From an uncultured Fibrobacter sp. (GTDB lineage: Bacteria; Fibrobacterota; Fibrobacteria; Fibrobacterales; Fibrobacteraceae), in assembly GCA_946414025.1 (NCBI GenBank), contig CAMKMX010000017.1, positions 1 through 53,253 on the forward strand: a stretch of DNA of 53,253 bases. Reading direction: 5' to 3'. Each line of letters begins with the position of its first letter. Within the stretch, counting starts at the first letter, position 1. The position numbers and the translations under genes were made by a program. Of this stretch, positions 44,371-52,378 are shown in pieces. The notes below the pieces were generated by a model. The model was given only the letters and a program-made list of their open reading frames with translations, was not told where the DNA came from and made no database searches.

Positions 44371-45045
44371 ATGTTTTTCGACAAAGATCCACTCGGTTTT
44401 TACAGCGTTGACATTAAATACGAAGGTTCAACAAAAGCAACTCAATATTGCATTGACGATTTCATGAAGCTACTTTATGGTAGTCGTAAAATTATAGATA
44501 TGACAATCCTAACATACGGAGAGTACCACGCTCTCATGTTATGTTTTGAAAATGACGATTACATAGTCTTTATCAAAAGTGGATTAACATCGGGCTATAT
44601 GGGAGAAGGCCCAAAGGGCACCTCCCTTATTATCCGCCTTGCAGAAGAAGCCGGCATAACCATCAAAGAATTAAATACAACACCATCGTTGTTTAAAAGG
44701 ATTAATACATCTCTTGCCACATCTAAAGATGTTCAATTCATCAAAAAGAATCGTAAGGATAGTTTTAACTACAATCGTCTTTGTTTAAAACTTGTAAACA
44801 AAGAATATCTCCAACGGGCGAAGGAATCTTTTTCAAAAAACAAGAATGTTATTTTCGTTAGAGATGAAAATGAAAAAACTAAAGAGACTGTTGAACTTGA
44901 TAGAGCAAGAGCGATAAAATTACTAGAAAAAATCGATGAAAAAATGGATAAAATATGTGAAAATACTAACAAGCCAGGAGCTTTAGCTGTTTTAGGTGAT
45001 ATTTCGTCAATCGTATCCACTCTAAAAGGTTTTCTTGGACTATAA
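44371..45045 (+). CDS. Hypothetical protein heading the restriction-modification locus
   Basis: The 224-residue protein is unfamiliar. It is hydrophilic, with a mixed alpha/beta N-terminal half (YGEYHALMLCFENDDYIVFIKSGLTSGYMGEGPKGTS as a region, cited by its start) and a charged coiled-coil C-terminal half (TVELDRARAIKLLEKIDEKMDKI), ending in a short hydrophobic helix. ATG 44371 has GGAGG upstream. Base composition is AT-rich compared with hsdM downstream, suggesting a separate origin. A -10-like TATATT lies in the gap before hsdM. Confidence 0.6.
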   Translation: MFFDKDPLGFYSVDIKYEGSTKATQYCIDDFMKLLYGSRKIIDMTILTYGEYHALMLCFENDDYIVFIKSGLTSGYMGEGPKGTSLIIRLAEEAGITIKELNTTPSLFKRINTSLATSKDVQFIKKNRKDSFNYNRLCLKLVNKEYLQRAKESFSKNKNVIFVRDENEKTKETVELDRARAIKLLEKIDEKMDKICENTNKPGALAVLGDISSIVSTLKGFLGL

Positions 45046-45092: not shown

Positions 45093-46835
45093 ATGACCGA
45101 CGTCGAACTTAAGAACTTGAAAGACCGTCTTTGGCATTCTGCCGACATGCTTCGTGCGGGTGCGCACCTCGCCGCAAACAAGTATGGACAGCCGATTTTG
45201 GGCCTTATCTTTTTGCGCTATGCTGACATTTTGTACAAACAGCACAAAGACGAAATCAACGCCGAGTTCGAAAAGCTCAAGGGTACGCGCCGTGCTCGCA
45301 CCCTGAAAGACATTTCCGTCGAAAAGTGCGGTTTCTACCTGCCGGAATGTGCCTACTTCGATACAATCAACGACGCTCCGGACGATGCCAAGAAGGCAAC
45401 CCTCGTAAAGAAGGCGATGAAGGCCATTGAAGAAGAAAACGAGAAGATGGACGGCGTTCTCCCCAAGGATGTCTATGCGCAGCTCGTTCCCGAAGAAGAA
45501 CCGGAACTGCTCTCGAAAATCGTGCGCGTGTTCAAAGACATTCCCGAAGATATCAGCATCGACTTGTTCGGCGAAATCTACGAATACTTCCTGGGCAATT
45601 TTGCTTTGGCCGAAGGCAAAGACGGCGGGACATTCTATACGCCCGCAACGGTCGTGCGCTACATGGTGAACGTGTTGCAGCCCCACGGCATCAACAAGAA
45701 ATTCCTGGACCCTGCTTGCGGTTCGGGCGGTATGTTCGTGCAGGCGGCCCGCTATATGCACCGTCACAACGCAAGTGCCGAAAATGACACTGCAATGAAC
45801 TTCCGTTGCTACGGCGTGGAAAAAGAGCCCGATACGGTCAAACTCGCCAAGATGAATCTGCTCCTGAACAATGTCCGTGGCGAAATCACCGAGGCGAACT
45901 CCTTCTACAGCGACCCCTACAATGCAGTGGGGCAATTCGATTACGTGATGGCAAACCCGCCATTCAACGTAGATGAAGTCGTCGTCGAAAAAGTCCAGAA
46001 GGACGAACGCTTTAGCACTTATGGCGTGCCGCGCAACGCGACAAAGTCCGCAAAGAAGGGCTCCGACAAAAAGGAAACCGTGCCCAACGCGAACTACCTT
46101 TGGATTGGCTACTTTGCGACAGCGCTGAACGAAAACGGCAAGGCGGCACTCGTCATGGCGAATTCCGCAAGTGATGCGGGCAAGAGCGAATACGAAATCC
46201 GCAAGAAAATGGTCGAAGAAGGAATCATCAGCCAGATGGTGACGCTACCCTCGAACATGTTCAACTCGGTGACGCTCCCGGCGACGCTCTGGTTCTTCGA
46301 CAAGCAAAAGGCAAACAGCAAAAAGAAAGACGAAATCCTCTTCATTGACGCTCGCAACGTATTTACGCAGGTGGACAGGGCGCACCGCAAGTTCAGCGAC
46401 GAACAGATAAAGAACCTCGCCGTCATCAGCCGACTCTACGAAGGCGACACGCAATCGTTCAAGGACCTGCTCAAGGAATACAAGGAAAGCCTCAAGAACG
46501 CCCCCGCAAGCAGCGACGACAAGGAAGTCAAAACCAAGGATTACTGGCAGGCACAAATCGACTGGCTCGCCGAACGGTTCCCCGACGGCAAATACCAGGA
46601 TGTAATCGGGCTTTGCAAGGTTGCAAAAATTGACGGCGAAGACGGAATCAAGGACCAGGATTATTCGCTGAATGCCGGCCGCTACGTAGGCGTGGTGATT
46701 GAAGACGATGGCATGACCGAAGCCGAATTCAAGCAGACCATGCTCGGATTGAACGATGACTTCACGAAATTGAGCGCCGAAGCGAAGAAATTGGAAAAAG
46801 AAATTGATGATAATTTGAAAGGATTGTTTGGTTAG
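45093..46835 (+). CDS. hsdM: Type I restriction-modification system, methyltransferase subunit
   Basis: The 580-residue adenine-N6 methyltransferase has an HsdM_N helical domain (residues 1-150; RLWHSADMLRAGAHLAANKY), SAM motif I DPACGSGGMF (near 206) and catalytic motif IV NPPF (near 287). The C-terminal part is helical (SAEAKKLEKEIDDNLKGL). It methylates the recognition site and is needed for restriction. hsdS starts three bases after its stop. Codon use is GC-rich and host-like, unlike the cargo genes. ATG 45093 has AGGAA. Confidence 0.96.
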   Translation: MTDVELKNLKDRLWHSADMLRAGAHLAANKYGQPILGLIFLRYADILYKQHKDEINAEFEKLKGTRRARTLKDISVEKCGFYLPECAYFDTINDAPDDAKKATLVKKAMKAIEEENEKMDGVLPKDVYAQLVPEEEPELLSKIVRVFKDIPEDISIDLFGEIYEYFLGNFALAEGKDGGTFYTPATVVRYMVNVLQPHGINKKFLDPACGSGGMFVQAARYMHRHNASAENDTAMNFRCYGVEKEPDTVKLAKMNLLLNNVRGEITEANSFYSDPYNAVGQFDYVMANPPFNVDEVVVEKVQKDERFSTYGVPRNATKSAKKGSDKKETVPNANYLWIGYFATALNENGKAALVMANSASDAGKSEYEIRKKMVEEGIISQMVTLPSNMFNSVTLPATLWFFDKQKANSKKKDEILFIDARNVFTQVDRAHRKFSDEQIKNLAVISRLYEGDTQSFKDLLKEYKESLKNAPASSDDKEVKTKDYWQAQIDWLAERFPDGKYQDVIGLCKVAKIDGEDGIKDQDYSLNAGRYVGVVIEDDGMTEAEFKQTMLGLNDDFTKLSAEAKKLEKEIDDNLKGLFG

Positions 46836-46838
46836 AAA

Positions 46839-47960
46839 ATGCAATATAAATTTGAACAACTCTTTGAATGGTCAAGCGGAAAGCCAATCGTTCCATCAAG
46901 TGGACCTATACCAATTTATGGTTCAAATGGAATTATTGGTTACACAAATGAGAAAAAATACCATAACAAAATTGTTCTAGGTCGTGTTGGGGCTTATTGC
47001 GGTTCTGTAGCATATTGTCCAAATGATTTTAATGCAACGGATAACACGCTCATAACAAGTTGTGATGAGAGCAAAATCTGCTACCATTATGCATATTATT
47101 TGCTAAAGAAATATCAATTGAATGATTATGCAGGTGGGGCAGCCCAACCCTTAATTACTCAGGGATTGTTGAAACACCTGAAATGCGAAATACCTACATT
47201 AGATATTCAAAAGAAAGTTGTTTCCATTCTCTCCGCTTATGATAGCCTGATAGAAAACAACAACAAGCGAATCAAGATTTTGGAACAGATGGCGGAGAAC
47301 CTTTACAAGGAATGGTTTGTTCGCTTCCGCTTCCCTGGCCACGAAACCACCTCATTTGAAAACGGAATCCCCAAGGGGTGGAAATTGAAACATGTTTCTG
47401 AAATAGGTGATATTATTGGTGGGGGAACTCCTTCTACAGACAATGAGGAATATTGGAATGGTAATATTCCTTGGCTTTCTCCAGCAGATTTAACTGATTA
47501 TCAAGGCGTTTATATAGACAAGGGCGCAAATAATATTACCGAACTTGGACTTGCTAAATCTAGTGCCAAAATGATGCCAAAAGATACAGTTCTTCTATCT
47601 TCAAGAGCACCTATAGGCTATGTTGCTTTAGCAAAAAATGATATATGTACAAATCAAGGCTTTAAGAGTATCGTGTGCAATCAGTCAATAATGAAACCAT
47701 CGTGCTTGTATTTGTATTTTAAGCTCAATAAGTCGTATCTGCAAAGTTTTGCAAGCGGAGCAACATTTCCTGAATTGTCTGGATCCATGGTGAAAAAATT
47801 GAAGGTTCTTGTTCCTGACATCTCTTTGTTGGAAAAATTTGATACTTTTGCTAAAAAATTGTTTGAAAAGACAGATGTCTTGTTGACGCAAAACCAAAAC
47901 CTCATCAAACAGCGCGACCTGCTCTTGCCCCGCCTCATGAGCGGAAAACAGGTCATCTAA
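46839..47960 (+). CDS. hsdS: Type I restriction-modification system, specificity subunit
   Basis: The 373-residue HsdS has two target recognition domains. TRD1 spans about residues 1-125 and TRD2 about 175-340, each followed by a conserved helix (KIRILEQMAENLYKEWFVRF near 150 and NLIKQRDLLLPRLMSGKQVI at the C-terminus). The TRDs choose the bipartite target. The TRD parts are AT-rich, but the two spacer helices are encoded in GC-richer sequence, a mosaic consistent with TRD exchange. The stop of hsdM is three bases upstream. Confidence 0.94.
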   Translation: MQYKFEQLFEWSSGKPIVPSSGPIPIYGSNGIIGYTNEKKYHNKIVLGRVGAYCGSVAYCPNDFNATDNTLITSCDESKICYHYAYYLLKKYQLNDYAGGAAQPLITQGLLKHLKCEIPTLDIQKKVVSILSAYDSLIENNNKRIKILEQMAENLYKEWFVRFRFPGHETTSFENGIPKGWKLKHVSEIGDIIGGGTPSTDNEEYWNGNIPWLSPADLTDYQGVYIDKGANNITELGLAKSSAKMMPKDTVLLSSRAPIGYVALAKNDICTNQGFKSIVCNQSIMKPSCLYLYFKLNKSYLQSFASGATFPELSGSMVKKLKVLVPDISLLEKFDTFAKKLFEKTDVLLTQNQNLIKQRDLLLPRLMSGKQVI

Positions 47961-48088: not shown

Positions 48089-49186
48089 ATGGAAAACGCA
48101 TTATATTATCCACACATAGCCTTAAAAAATCCACAATTAATAAAAGCAATGGCTCTCTACTACGACAACATTTATAGAATTGTCCCAAGCCACATTGAGC
48201 CGAATGATCCTGAGGAGCTCAAGCCATTATTAGAAGACGGGCGCATTGGAAAGAAAATTAATCCAATACCTTACGTAAGCGAAACATCACATAATTTCCT
48301 GGAAAAAAAAGATGAATGGCGCGCAGCCGCACTTTCTCACAATGACGACAGTGAAGAGCCAATAGTTCGGCTACACATGGAGAAAACTGACGAGCATGTG
48401 CGCAATCTCTTTCGCGAAGCTGGCTTTGAAGAAGACCACGACTGGATGCAAGTACCAACAAGGTTTGCATCTAACTATATGCTCTATATGGCTAACGAAA
48501 TAGCATCAAGGAATAATCTCTCCCTAATTACAGGAGATTGGGGGGCATGGACCGGGACAACCTATTTTGGCATAAACGGACGAGTAGATGAATTCATTAC
48601 AGCAATTGGCATAGACGACAGAAGTTCTGAAGACGAAAGCTTTGGTTTATTTGGCCTTTTAATCAACAATCTTTCACCAGTAAACATATCTAGCATTCCT
48701 GCAAACAAAATTGTAGAGTTCCGCCAAAGAAGAAAAGACGAAATAGAGCAGTTTCGCCATTGCGTGCAAGACCTTCGTGAAGAACTTTTATCTGTAGAGG
48801 AACATGACATTCGTGTTGACATCATCAAACAAAAAGCAGAGGACCTCGCTAAAGCGCAAAAAGACTACCAAAAAAGTGCAGATATAATTAATGCTCGAAA
48901 GTGGTTTGGCACCTCATTTATGGGATTTCCTGCACCATTATCTTTTTGTCAGTTTTTCTCCCTTCCCGCAGCATCAACTGTAGCACTTACTGCAACAGGG
49001 CTTGCTCTTGGGGGAATATTCAATATTCACAATGCTAAAGAAGAAATAAAAAATCTTAACAAAAAAAATCCAGCATCTTTTCTAATAGAATTAAACAGAT
49101 CGTTCAAAAATTACACCTGGCTTAGGGGAGGTGGCGACATAAACTTCCATGCATACAATTGCATGGAAGAGTATGTTAACGACTAG
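48089..49186 (+). CDS. DUF6236-like protein in the R-M cargo
   Basis: The 365-residue protein starts MENALYYPHIALKNPQLIKAMALYYDNIYRIVPSHIEP (start of the family pattern), which resembles DUF6236 proteins as I remember them; the assignment needs a profile search. The C-terminal third has a charged coiled region (EHDIRVDIIKQKAEDLAKAQKDYQ) followed by a hydrophobic stretch (FPAPLSFCQFFSLPAASTVALT). The start at 48089 has AAAGGA; an in-frame codon at 48032 lacks one. It is AT-rich and lies between hsdS and hsdR. The function is unknown. Confidence 0.65.
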   Translation: MENALYYPHIALKNPQLIKAMALYYDNIYRIVPSHIEPNDPEELKPLLEDGRIGKKINPIPYVSETSHNFLEKKDEWRAAALSHNDDSEEPIVRLHMEKTDEHVRNLFREAGFEEDHDWMQVPTRFASNYMLYMANEIASRNNLSLITGDWGAWTGTTYFGINGRVDEFITAIGIDDRSSEDESFGLFGLLINNLSPVNISSIPANKIVEFRQRRKDEIEQFRHCVQDLREELLSVEEHDIRVDIIKQKAEDLAKAQKDYQKSADIINARKWFGTSFMGFPAPLSFCQFFSLPAASTVALTATGLALGGIFNIHNAKEEIKNLNKKNPASFLIELNRSFKNYTWLRGGGDINFHAYNCMEEYVND

Positions 49187-49371: not shown

Positions 49372-50118
49372 ATGTATAACGGTCTTTATATTTTTTTAGG
49401 ATTCACAATTGGTTTTTGCACAACAATAATCATTTGGTTATACGCATTCATTTCATCACAATTCAAATTAAGGAATCATATGAGATTTATCCTATCAGCC
49501 GCCCCATTTATTCTATATGCACTAGCAGCCTATATCATTTACAAATGTAATGAAAATCTCCTAAGTGCTAAGTTGCCAGAATATTTTGCGGCAGTTTCAA
49601 CATTAGCGGCAGCTTTAGTCGCCCTGTTTAAAGATCGTTATACTAATTTCGTTGACAAACCTATTTTGACTTTATGCAAAAAAGATAACGATTCTTTATC
49701 TCTAACGCCTAGAAAAAATGGTGCTGTAGCAATTATAGCCGTAAAAAACATCGGAAGATCAATTGCAAAAAACACGTTTGCACAAATTGAATTGATAAAA
49801 TCTTCAGATGGCTTTAATCAAGATTATGAAATGCCTAGAATGAATCTCTATCTGGGATTTCACAACAAAGATGTACAAAAATGCGACATTTACCCAGATT
49901 TAAAAGAAGTTTTTGATGTCCTTTATAAGGATGACAATGATGGACCATTCAAATTAACAACATCCATTGAAAAGGATGGTATTCCCTTAGACAAGGGAAC
50001 ATACATTTTTAAGTTAATCATCGGAGCAGATAATGCTGATTTCATTGAAAAAAAATTAGTTATTGATACAGATAAAGATCCTGCCGAAGTAAAAATACAA
50101 CCATGGCAAGAAATGTAA
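49372..50118 (+). CDS. Membrane-anchored protein of unknown function in the cargo
   Basis: The 248-residue protein has two or three N-terminal membrane helices (YNGLYIFLGFTIGFCTTIIIW, FILSAAPFILYALAAYIIY, and FAAVSTLAAALVALFK), followed by a beta-rich soluble part (residues 95-248) with VAIIAVKNIGRSIAKNTF, an arrangement that could place the domain on either side. No ribosome site precedes ATG 49372. AT-rich. I do not recognise the family; membrane-plus-beta proteins are common among defence effectors, but that is only suggestive. Confidence 0.6.
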   Translation: MYNGLYIFLGFTIGFCTTIIIWLYAFISSQFKLRNHMRFILSAAPFILYALAAYIIYKCNENLLSAKLPEYFAAVSTLAAALVALFKDRYTNFVDKPILTLCKKDNDSLSLTPRKNGAVAIIAVKNIGRSIAKNTFAQIELIKSSDGFNQDYEMPRMNLYLGFHNKDVQKCDIYPDLKEVFDVLYKDDNDGPFKLTTSIEKDGIPLDKGTYIFKLIIGADNADFIEKKLVIDTDKDPAEVKIQPWQEM

Positions 50119-50424
50119 TTTTTCAGAACCAATTTAGCCTATATTAATATAAGCCAATGGAATTAGGCTTCGCTTTCGATTTTTTCTTAAAGAACTGTTT
50201 TGGATGTATAGTGACTACATTCATAAACCTCCAAATCAGGAAGATTTTTAGGTAAAAACGGCTAAAACTGTAATATAAACCAATTTTTCTGTTTTTTTGC
50301 GCAAAAAAAACAAAATTTAGCCTCTTGATTTAGGGAAATCAATTGGATTTGCTATAGCTCCATGTTAATCGCGTTGTCTTTTTGTGAATAAAATGCTATT
50401 TTATGCTTTAGCCAAGGAGGTGGT
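50119..50424. other. 306-bp intergenic region before the TIGR04255 operon
   Basis: AT-rich. Contains TTTTTTTGCGCAAAAAAA near 50292, a TAAAAACGGCTAAAACTG segment recalling the Rpn-flanking repeat, and the promoter at 50374-50402. No gene seen. Confidence 0.55.
50374..50402 (+). promoter_or_regulatory. Putative promoter of the TIGR04255 operon
   Basis: TTGTCT (50374-50379), 17 bases, TATTTT (50397-50402), then AAGGAGGTGG directly before the start codon at 50425. Confidence 0.5.
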
Positions 50425-51144
50425 ATGGCAACAAGAATACCCCTGAAACTTAACGACCCGAAACTGGTTTCGGTTTCATTTGAACTCCGCTTTGAAGCCG
50501 ATGAGACATATCCTGATATAGCCGCACTTAACCTCGCAAACACCTTGGTTCAACAAGGACATGGGTCCTTGTTTCAATTACCTATAATGCAACTGCCTCC
50601 AGTCGCACGTAATAGTGATCCGAATTTCCGCTACACCCCCCTGTTTGGTGTAAACATGAACGGGACCGTTGTCCAAGTTGGTCCGCGAGTGCTGGTCGTT
50701 ACTGAGGAGAAGTATCCAGGATGGAAAGAATTCCATCCTATAATAACAAATGTCCTCGAATATACTAAGGGAATCCGCAAAAAAACTGAACGAGTTGGAT
50801 TCCGTACAATTAACTTTTTCGAAAGCCAAGACATCGAAAACAACTTAATCACAACAATTCACAATGGTTTGGACCTTGAAAAAACAGCCTGCAATTTTTC
50901 TTTAGTCTATAAAAATGGCGATTTTCGTGCTCGTTATTCTTTTTCCAACGATGCAAAAATGTCTAAAAATGGACAGCCCGAAAAAAAAGGTTCTTTTGTA
51001 GATATTGATTCCTTTTTTGAAGGAAATCCATCTGATAATGACGAATGCGTCAATATGCTGCATGATCTAGGAAAAAAAGTATTCTTTGAATCCTTAAAAC
51101 AAGAATTTGTGGATGCAATGGGGCCTGTTTATGACGCCGACTAA
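50425..51144 (+). CDS. TIGR04255-family protein
   Basis: A 239-residue protein. The opening LNDPKLVSVSFELRFEA and the core VVQVGPRVLVVTEEKYPGWKEFHPIITNVLEY followed by RVGFRTINFFE match the sporadic family TIGR04255 as I recall it; these segments are cited by start and end only. The family is patchy, commonly near restriction or toxin genes, and has no agreed function. A strong AAGGAGGTGG precedes ATG 50425. The stop overlaps the next gene's start by 14 bases. It is AT-rich cargo between hsdS and hsdR. Confidence 0.8.
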   Translation: MATRIPLKLNDPKLVSVSFELRFEADETYPDIAALNLANTLVQQGHGSLFQLPIMQLPPVARNSDPNFRYTPLFGVNMNGTVVQVGPRVLVVTEEKYPGWKEFHPIITNVLEYTKGIRKKTERVGFRTINFFESQDIENNLITTIHNGLDLEKTACNFSLVYKNGDFRARYSFSNDAKMSKNGQPEKKGSFVDIDSFFEGNPSDNDECVNMLHDLGKKVFFESLKQEFVDAMGPVYDAD

Positions 51145-51688
51145 AAACGGGACTAGAATATCAACTAATTCTATATCAACCATATCCCCAATGGTTGTAT
51201 TTGGTCTTGCTGCAATAACAGCAGCAACTTCTCCAGACTATTTACTGAATAAAGCTTATCTCACAGAAGATCCCATCCCGTTTGAAACGCCATTCAATAG
51301 CGATTCTCCATCAACAATGCAGGATCTTTTTGAAAACCAAATGAATAGAAAACTCCTAGTTTTGGAGGAAAGACTTAATCAGTTTAAAACGTTAAAATGT
51401 GATTGGAATGGCTATGATGCAGCGCCAATTCCATCGTCAGCTATTGATACCGCAAAAACGTTTTTGAAAAGTCTTAGAAGCGGCAATATAAATCTCAATG
51501 GATGGGAAGTTTTCCCTACTGCCAGAGAAACTATTCAATTAGAAAAGACTGTTGGTGATGATTATGTCGAAATTGAAATCTATAAAGATGGACATTTGGC
51601 ATTTTATTCGGAAGGTAAGAAAAATCTTGAAATTGAATCTATTCCTGAGTATCAAGCGATGGAGATTATTTCAAGTGTTTTCTCTTAA
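51131..51688 (+). CDS. WDGYxAxPxS-motif partner protein
   Basis: The 185-residue protein starts at ATG 51131, inside the end of the TIGR04255 gene. It contains LKCDWNGYDAAPIPSSAIDTAKTFL (cited in part: DWNGYDAAPIPSS), a motif I associate with small proteins encoded beside TIGR04255-type or RM loci, and a C-terminal beta segment (DDYVEIEIYKDGHLAFYSEG). An N-terminal stretch (MVVFGLAAITAATS) is hydrophobic. Its function is unknown. Its last bases overlap the next gene. Confidence 0.65.
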   Translation: MTPTKNGTRISTNSISTISPMVVFGLAAITAATSPDYLLNKAYLTEDPIPFETPFNSDSPSTMQDLFENQMNRKLLVLEERLNQFKTLKCDWNGYDAAPIPSSAIDTAKTFLKSLRSGNINLNGWEVFPTARETIQLEKTVGDDYVEIEIYKDGHLAFYSEGKKNLEIESIPEYQAMEIISSVFS

Positions 51689-52097
51689 AAACAGTCAAAT
51701 AAATTTGGATTATGTTGATGATGGCGAATTTTTATTTCGAGCAATTCATCCAAACACTCCAACAACCATATTTATAAAAGAAGACGGAAGCCCCTCATCT
51801 GCAATACTCAAGGATTCCCATGGAGTATCAGTTGATCGTGATGGAAAAAGAAGCGACAAAGATGTAATGTCCTTTTTTTGTAAAGTGCAAAAAGATTTAG
51901 GCAATACAAAGGTTTACTCAAAATTTCTCAAGGTGCCCACAAAAATTGTTAGAGAAAACGAGTGTGAAGCCTTGCCCAAGCCAACAGATAATAACCCCTA
52001 CCATGCTTTGATTCTACAAAATTGTGGAGGAGAAATAAAAAGAAAATCGGCAAAAAAAATCATAGATCAAAGCGCTATTTTAGATTATCCTTTATAA
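51675..52097 (+). CDS. RAIHP/SVDR-motif partner protein
   Basis: The 140-residue protein begins at GTG 51675 (GGAG ten bases upstream), overlapping the preceding stop. It carries FLFRAIHPNTP and AILKDSHGVSVDRDGKRS, a pattern (R-x-I-H-P, then S-V-D-R) that I have seen in small proteins encoded next to WDGY proteins. No domain is recognised. The three genes form one overlapping unit, so they are very likely cotranslated. The start is uncertain because no ATG fits. Confidence 0.6.
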   Translation: MFSLKNSQINLDYVDDGEFLFRAIHPNTPTTIFIKEDGSPSSAILKDSHGVSVDRDGKRSDKDVMSFFCKVQKDLGNTKVYSKFLKVPTKIVRENECEALPKPTDNNPYHALILQNCGGEIKRKSAKKIIDQSAILDYPL

Positions 52098-52163
52098 TAC
52101 GCTTTCTTATTGAAAGTAACAACTCACTTTGCAGAAGAACTCTTCAACCTTGAGGTAAAGAAC

Positions 52164-52313
52164 ATGACAGACCTAAAAGCTGAACACGAAAACGGCTTTG
52201 CCGAAGGAAAGGAAGTAAGACTCGCTGAAGCAATTTCTGCACTGAAGAACATGGGTTTGCCGCCTGAAAAGATCGACGAATTCAAGGAAATAATCAAAGA
52301 ATCCGATAAATAA
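52164..52313 (+). CDS. 49-residue ORF resembling an Rpn C-terminal tail
   Basis: ATG 52164 follows GAGG and encodes a helical peptide (TDLKAEHENGFAEGKEVRLAEA, ending KIDEFKEIIKESDK). The pattern of a charged tail with GFAEGK and a terminal PPEKIDEF helix resembles the C-termini of Rpn-family nucleases, so it may be a remnant. An open frame continues upstream to 52110. It could also be a genuine small fourth gene of the operon. Confidence 0.4.
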   Translation: MTDLKAEHENGFAEGKEVRLAEAISALKNMGLPPEKIDEFKEIIKESDK

Positions 52314-52343
52314 CGGCAAAATCACTAGCCTTTTATATACTAG

Positions 52344-52378
52344 CACCTATAGCGAATCCCCTATAGGTGTTTATTTAT
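52344..52378 (+). terminator. Terminator at the end of the cargo operon
   Basis: CACCTATAG (52344-52352) and CTATAGGTG (52361-52369) pair around CGAATCCC, followed by TTTATTTATT. Confidence 0.75.

What the first reader, a model, noticed from the sequence alone, without database searches (positions are those of the whole stretch)
50374..52378. Self-contained TIGR04255-like operon inside a type I R-M locus
A promoter (TTGTCT-N17-TATTTT), a strong ribosome site, three genes overlapping end to start (TIGR04255-like, WDGYxAxPxS, RAIHP/SVDR) and a terminator form one unit between hsdS and hsdR. The genes are AT-rich, the hsd genes are not. Location and overlap are seen directly. That this is a defence or toxin-antitoxin-type module is inference. 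No catalytic motif was recognised.
Basis: partly seen in the sequence, partly recalled or inferred. Interest (0 to 1): 0.75.

Follow-up and report, generated by a model that had tools for sequence, protein, structure and literature searches.

The report
TIGR04255 three-gene toxin-swapping module
Three overlapping genes inside a DNA-restriction locus match a three-gene module found in many bacteria, in which the last gene differs from one host to another and includes known toxin types, so the set likely works as a toxin, its likely antidote and a third protein that would control when the toxin is freed.

The parts
50374..50402 (+). promoter-like TTGTCT-N17-TATTTT (8 of 12; no better than chance)
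   Evidence: read; not among scan hits
50425..51144 (+). gene A, TIGR04255 family protein, 239 aa; likely sensor or chaperone-like third component
   Evidence: TIGR04255 E 2.1e-23; phrog_5464 E 1.1e-22; AlphaFold model pLDDT 89.6
51131..51688 (+). gene B, 185 aa: ~70-aa N-terminal part with a hydrophobic stretch + C-terminal W(D/N)GYxAxP ('WDG') domain shared with PDC-M32A; likely antitoxin
   Evidence: PDC-M32A E 2.1e-5 over residues 79-167; own WDG HMM from residue 69, 8.4e-29, window in seed
51675..52097 (+). gene C (GTG start), 140 aa, distant PDC-M32B relative, predicted ADP-ribosyltransferase-like fold; likely toxin/effector
   Evidence: hhalign against four M32B proteins E 1.9e-5, prob 77.8; model and fold comparison
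52164..52313 (+). small fourth ORF, 49 aa, relation to the cassette unknown
   Evidence: no family over a cut-off
52342..52371 (+). terminator-like hairpin followed by TATTTATTAT

Best explanation
The three genes overlap as one unit and match a recurrent three-gene module in which a TIGR04255 gene precedes an exchangeable gene pair; here C is likely the toxin (predicted ADP-ribosyltransferase-like fold), B likely its antitoxin, and A would be a third component that likely keeps the antitoxin working and releases the toxin on a trigger such as phage infection. Shown by calls: gene structure; TIGR04255 identity; the WDG domain in B; C's distant relation to M32B; co-occurrence of WDG and M32B genes with and without TIGR04255; different pairs behind TIGR04255, with Pfam toxins in the third slot of some. 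Inferred: that gene 3 is the toxin in every type; that gene 2 neutralises it (a sub-threshold PrlF-like tail before YhaV and the helix-turn-helix before TCDI are hints); that A acts on gene 2, perhaps through its variable N-terminal part; that the trigger is phage.
Confidence: 0.52

Rival explanations
1. A two-part toxin-antitoxin pair (B, C) with TIGR04255 merely an autoregulator or a second antitoxin, with no sensing or chaperone role.
For: WDG+M32B pairs stand without TIGR04255, some with antitoxin-like N-termini on the WDG gene (the likeness is by eye).
Against: In 17 of 99 loci gene 2 already carries an HTH, so a mere repressor would be redundant there; A stays while the pair is exchanged.
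Confidence: 0.2
2. A non-toxic enzymatic defence complex: A recognises an invader's product, B bridges, C modifies a target (PDC-M32-like effector).
For: PDC-M32 is a PADLOC defence candidate; location in a restriction locus.
Against: The third slot holds PIN, PemK, YhaV and HEPN proteins in sister loci, which are toxins by family.
Confidence: 0.15
3. An accessory part of the type I restriction system itself (modulator of HsdR or anti-restriction control).
For: Lies between hsdS and hsdR; L018 has a cassette right behind an ORF that reads like the 3' end of hsdR (by eye).
Against: In 19 plasmid and phage loci read, no hsd gene is annotated in the fetched stretch (one record has no annotation and the plasmid gene tables are incomplete).
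Confidence: 0.07
4. Passenger cargo of a mobile or recombination hot spot with no selected joint function.
For: AT-rich and sporadic: TIGR04255 in 8 of 167 genomes of the phylum; the hsdS-hsdR gap holds other unrelated genes.
Against: The same kinds of pair recur behind TIGR04255 in several bacterial groups.
Confidence: 0.06

Closest known systems
PDC-M32 (PADLOC phage-defence candidate; M32A + M32B)
   Same: The WDG domain of B is M32A's C-terminal domain; C is M32B-like and follows it directly with overlap.
   Different: M32A's N-terminal ~250-aa domain is absent; a separate TIGR04255 gene precedes instead. The only held paper naming PDC-M32 lists PADLOC hits in Sinorhizobium prophages (PMC12429752, passages).
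CmdTAC / toxin-antitoxin-chaperone (TAC) systems
   Same: Three components; toxins vary while the third component stays; an ADP-ribosyltransferase toxin in CmdTAC; antitoxins carry an extra, poorly conserved extension (PMC11618068, PMC5105189, abstracts and passages).
   Different: A is TIGR04255, with no SecB match; gene order is A-B-C; the extra part here is N-terminal and its role is a guess.
Type II toxin families PIN, PemK/MazF, YhaV, HEPN
   Same: Members fill the third slot behind TIGR04255 elsewhere.
   Different: Here the pair is WDG + M32B-like.
KptA/Tpt1, DarT, ParT/RES ADP-ribosyltransferase-fold proteins
   Different: 7-15 % identity in those rows; no catalytic set mapped.

Membership tests
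TIGR04255 (NCBIfam subfamily) | score over the curated cut-off across the whole model | tested here: met
   83.4 bits against 30, model 1-252 of 252
PDC-M32 | M32B-family second protein | tested here: inconclusive
   hmmscan no hit at E <= 1; profile-profile E 1.9e-5, prob 77.8
PDC-M32 | full-length M32A with its N-terminal domain | tested here: not met
   B matches only profile 262-348 of 375; A has no M32A hit
TAC (toxin-antitoxin-chaperone) | SecB-like chaperone | tested here: not met
   by sequence: A is full-length TIGR04255 and has no Pfam hit at E <= 1; A was not compared with a SecB structure directly
Type II toxin-antitoxin | toxin inhibits growth alone and is neutralised by its antitoxin | not testable with these tools
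   needs expression tests
Type II toxin-antitoxin | small overlapping co-directional gene pair | tested here: met
   B and C overlap by 14 bases
ADP-ribosyltransferase superfamily | ART fold | tested here: inconclusive
ADP-ribosyltransferase superfamily | NAD+-dependent modification | not testable with these tools
   biochemistry needed
Type I restriction-modification | member of an Hsd subunit family | tested here: not met
   no Hsd family among hits of A, B, C

The most novel reading that the evidence does not exclude
TIGR04255 is the common control protein of a large, undescribed class of three-component toxin-antitoxin defences: one sensor/chaperone-type fold put in charge of many unrelated toxins (ADP-ribosyltransferase-like M32B, PIN, PemK/MazF, YhaV, HEPN, TCDI, DUF7689) by exchange of the antitoxin-toxin pair behind it, a second, SecB-independent invention of the TAC principle.
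Probability: 0.4. Interest if true: 0.88.

Novelty: new variant of a known kind. Interest (0 to 1): 0.73.

Why it matters
It gives an unassigned, sporadic protein family (TIGR04255) a consistent genomic setting, links the untested defence candidate PDC-M32 to a modular toxin-antitoxin logic, and names new candidate toxins (TCDI, M32B, DUF7689) by position. If right, one protein's trigger could be tested across many toxins, which bears directly on how anti-phage toxin-antitoxin systems are switched on.

Tried and rejected
Scans of genome contigs and viral contigs with the window's C family found no relative. tblastn of B and C against plasmids: no match. Within the phylum (167 genomes) B's profile found only the window and a lone WDG gene and C's only the window at E <= 0.001, with three weak hits to 0.066 not followed. 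Idea that a hydrophobic N-terminus marks every gene 2: not supported. No N-terminal motif common to the types: 12 similar pairs among the first 60 residues of the 99 second genes. Foldseek of A: AdoMetDC prozyme E 2.1e-4 but TM 0.30, taken only as partial likeness; SecB is not in the 50 rows shown. First-reader promoter rejected as evidence.

Counting notes: 2 of 100 surveyed loci (L025, L120) had no hit by my TIGR04255 HMM and were dropped. Searches return at most 30 loci each, best first, so counts are of a sample. The survey script looked only downstream of TIGR04255; that it is the first gene rests on the window and on the 15 plasmid tables, where the nearest annotated same-strand gene upstream is 80 bases or more away. 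HMM seeds for WDG and M32B include the window, and L021 is in the HEPN seed, so their own hits are by construction; the 75-row alignment holds the window more than once. Of the 34 loci with an unclassified gene 3, I sent 10 to Pfam, chosen by eye for toxin-like looks; the toxin share is not an unbiased estimate. TCDI in 13 of 15 plasmid loci is my reading (L039 by annotation and gene lengths only), and nine of them seeded the HMM. L116 is the same place as L043, and L054 encodes the same protein as L041.

Full report
What is there. The window (contig C17 of a 2.5-Mb, 82 % complete genome; Fibrobacterota inferred from the record title of L054, which encodes the same protein as same-family locus L041) ends in a type I restriction locus: hsdM 45093-46835, hsdS 46839-47960, a DUF6236-like gene to 49186, a likely membrane-protein gene 49372-50118, the cassette, and hsdR from 52395 (DUF6236; HsdR N-terminal Pfam match; hsdM and hsdS by reading). 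Genes A, B and C overlap by 14 bases at both junctions. A is TIGR04255. Pfam has nothing for A, B or C at E <= 1. Protein searches gave 12 relatives of B and 7 of C (window included) and 14 of A; several share the same longest-contig length (6157 for an A and a B, 16774 for a B and a C), which suggests, but does not show, that they stand together there too. In the 167 genomes of the phylum, B's profile found only the window and a lone gene, C's only the window at E <= 0.001: the close family is rare.

B and C belong to, or near, PDC-M32's families. B hits PADLOC PDC-M32A over its C-terminal part (E 2.1e-5). A same-family genome (L041) carries a two-gene pair: a protein with the same domain (M32A 1.5e-36) and an M32B protein (8e-46); three plasmid pairs are full M32A + M32B. 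C's family against an alignment of those four M32B proteins gives E 1.9e-5, probability 77.8 % over 99 columns. A genome scan with that alignment gave 63 M32B loci; in 59 the gene directly before M32B carries the WDG domain, 49 of them with M32A's N-terminal domain and 10 without, three of the ten at the edge of the stretch (L072, L094, L109); 4 of 63 had no WDG call. The others include short antitoxin-like N-termini and, in L103, a separate upstream gene (by eye; the DUF104/AF2212-antitoxin likeness of L088 and L102 is recalled, not tested). None of the 63 has TIGR04255 in the stretch held. So WDG + M32B is a pair whose front part is exchanged; in the window the front part is a TIGR04255 gene.

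TIGR04255 stands before different pairs. It occurs in 8 of 167 genomes of the window's phylum, 34 of 369 of the class of a Marinospirillum genome, 28 of 395 of the class of a Bacteroidales genome (27 over the cut-off), 65 of 392 of the phylum of a Gemmataceae genome and 4 of 29 genomes with M32B (one of 30 handles was not held); in none of 14 control genomes. Among plasmids, 15 of 72,556 records match one divergent member and 1 matches A; among phages 5 of 50,697. I fetched 19 of these places. In all 15 plasmid loci two further genes follow; 13 have a gene 3 with a motif near QG(D)...(S/T)Q(S/T)CD(I/V) ('TCDI', my label) and an HTH gene 2; L035 (Thermus) has a HEPN gene 3 over Pfam's cut-off; L026 (Rhizobium) an unknown pair. 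In phages Dobby and VW-6S, two viral contigs and a Phocaeicola plasmid, A is followed by a ~100-aa gene and a ~200-aa TCDI-like gene; in phage SNW-1 the third gene reads as HEPN-like but has no Pfam hit.

Survey. 100 TIGR04255 loci (93) were annotated by script, downstream side only; 2 had no hit by my HMM; with the window 99 remain. Classes after iteration: WDG+M32B 23, M32B alone 4, WDG alone 3, HTH+TCDI 16, HTH alone 1, TCDI with other or mis-called gene 2 12, HEPN 3, neither 37. Controls: 0 of 1,910 shuffled proteins hit any HMM, and the M32B and WDG HMMs never hit the other position. No background rate for the ORF rule itself was made. Without iteration the pairing is already visible: 7 of 8 M32B loci also have WDG, none has TCDI. 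Ten unclassified third genes, chosen by eye, went to Pfam: PIN 5, PemK 1, YhaV 1, DUF7689 1, none 2. Of nine second genes sent, one (before YhaV) ends like PrlF and one (L203) is PHD-like, both below cut-off; seven had no hit. L142's HEPN assignment rests on my HMM alone; Pfam did not confirm it.

What is known. No paper of the held library contains 'TIGR04255'; 'PDC-M32' is in one, which lists PADLOC hits (passages). A search for tripartite toxin-antitoxin terms (15 of 97 papers listed, listing read) showed HipBST, TAC and CmdTAC papers. Subscription journals and preprints were not searchable.

Verdict. A real three-gene unit, and one case of a recurrent module with a shared TIGR04255 gene and exchanged partners. 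New variant of a known kind (three-component toxin-antitoxin-type systems), with a fair chance of being a new class.

Noticed in passing
48089-49186 and 49372-50118: Two further AT-rich genes between hsdS and the cassette: a DUF6236-like protein (PF19749 E 2.6e-9) and a likely membrane protein (by reading); the hsdS-hsdR gap looks like a cargo site.
   Followed up: no
52164-52313: 49-aa ORF that by eye looks like the tail of a larger protein; possibly a remnant.
   Followed up: no
44371-45045: 224-aa gene just before hsdM with a weak phage-family match (phrog_19231 E 1.2e-5).
   Followed up: no
L004 1459-1842; L012-L016 near the match: WDG-domain proteins without an evident M32B neighbour, next to an RtcB-like gene (L004, by eye) and in large viral contigs.
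   Followed up: partly
L103 1537-2196: Separate 219-aa gene before a 295-aa WDG gene and M32B: another three-gene form with a different leading gene.
   Followed up: no
L018 498-3677: A TIGR04255 cassette directly behind what reads as the 3' end of hsdR, a second restriction-locus placement (by eye).
   Followed up: no
L026, L031, L034, L035, L037: Plasmid cassettes lie beside multiubiquitin/ThiF/DUF6527, VapBC, Fic, VapC and cas6, and a SLATT gene.
   Followed up: no
third genes of L157, L181, L182, L184, L192: A family (DUF7689 by Pfam for L182, 3.7e-40; the others linked to it by phmmer) recurs behind TIGR04255 and is a candidate new toxin.
   Followed up: partly
third genes of L122, L124 and L026: A further recurring third-gene family with conserved Cys and His that might be a cysteine-peptidase-like effector (by eye; L122 and L124 linked by phmmer).
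   Followed up: no
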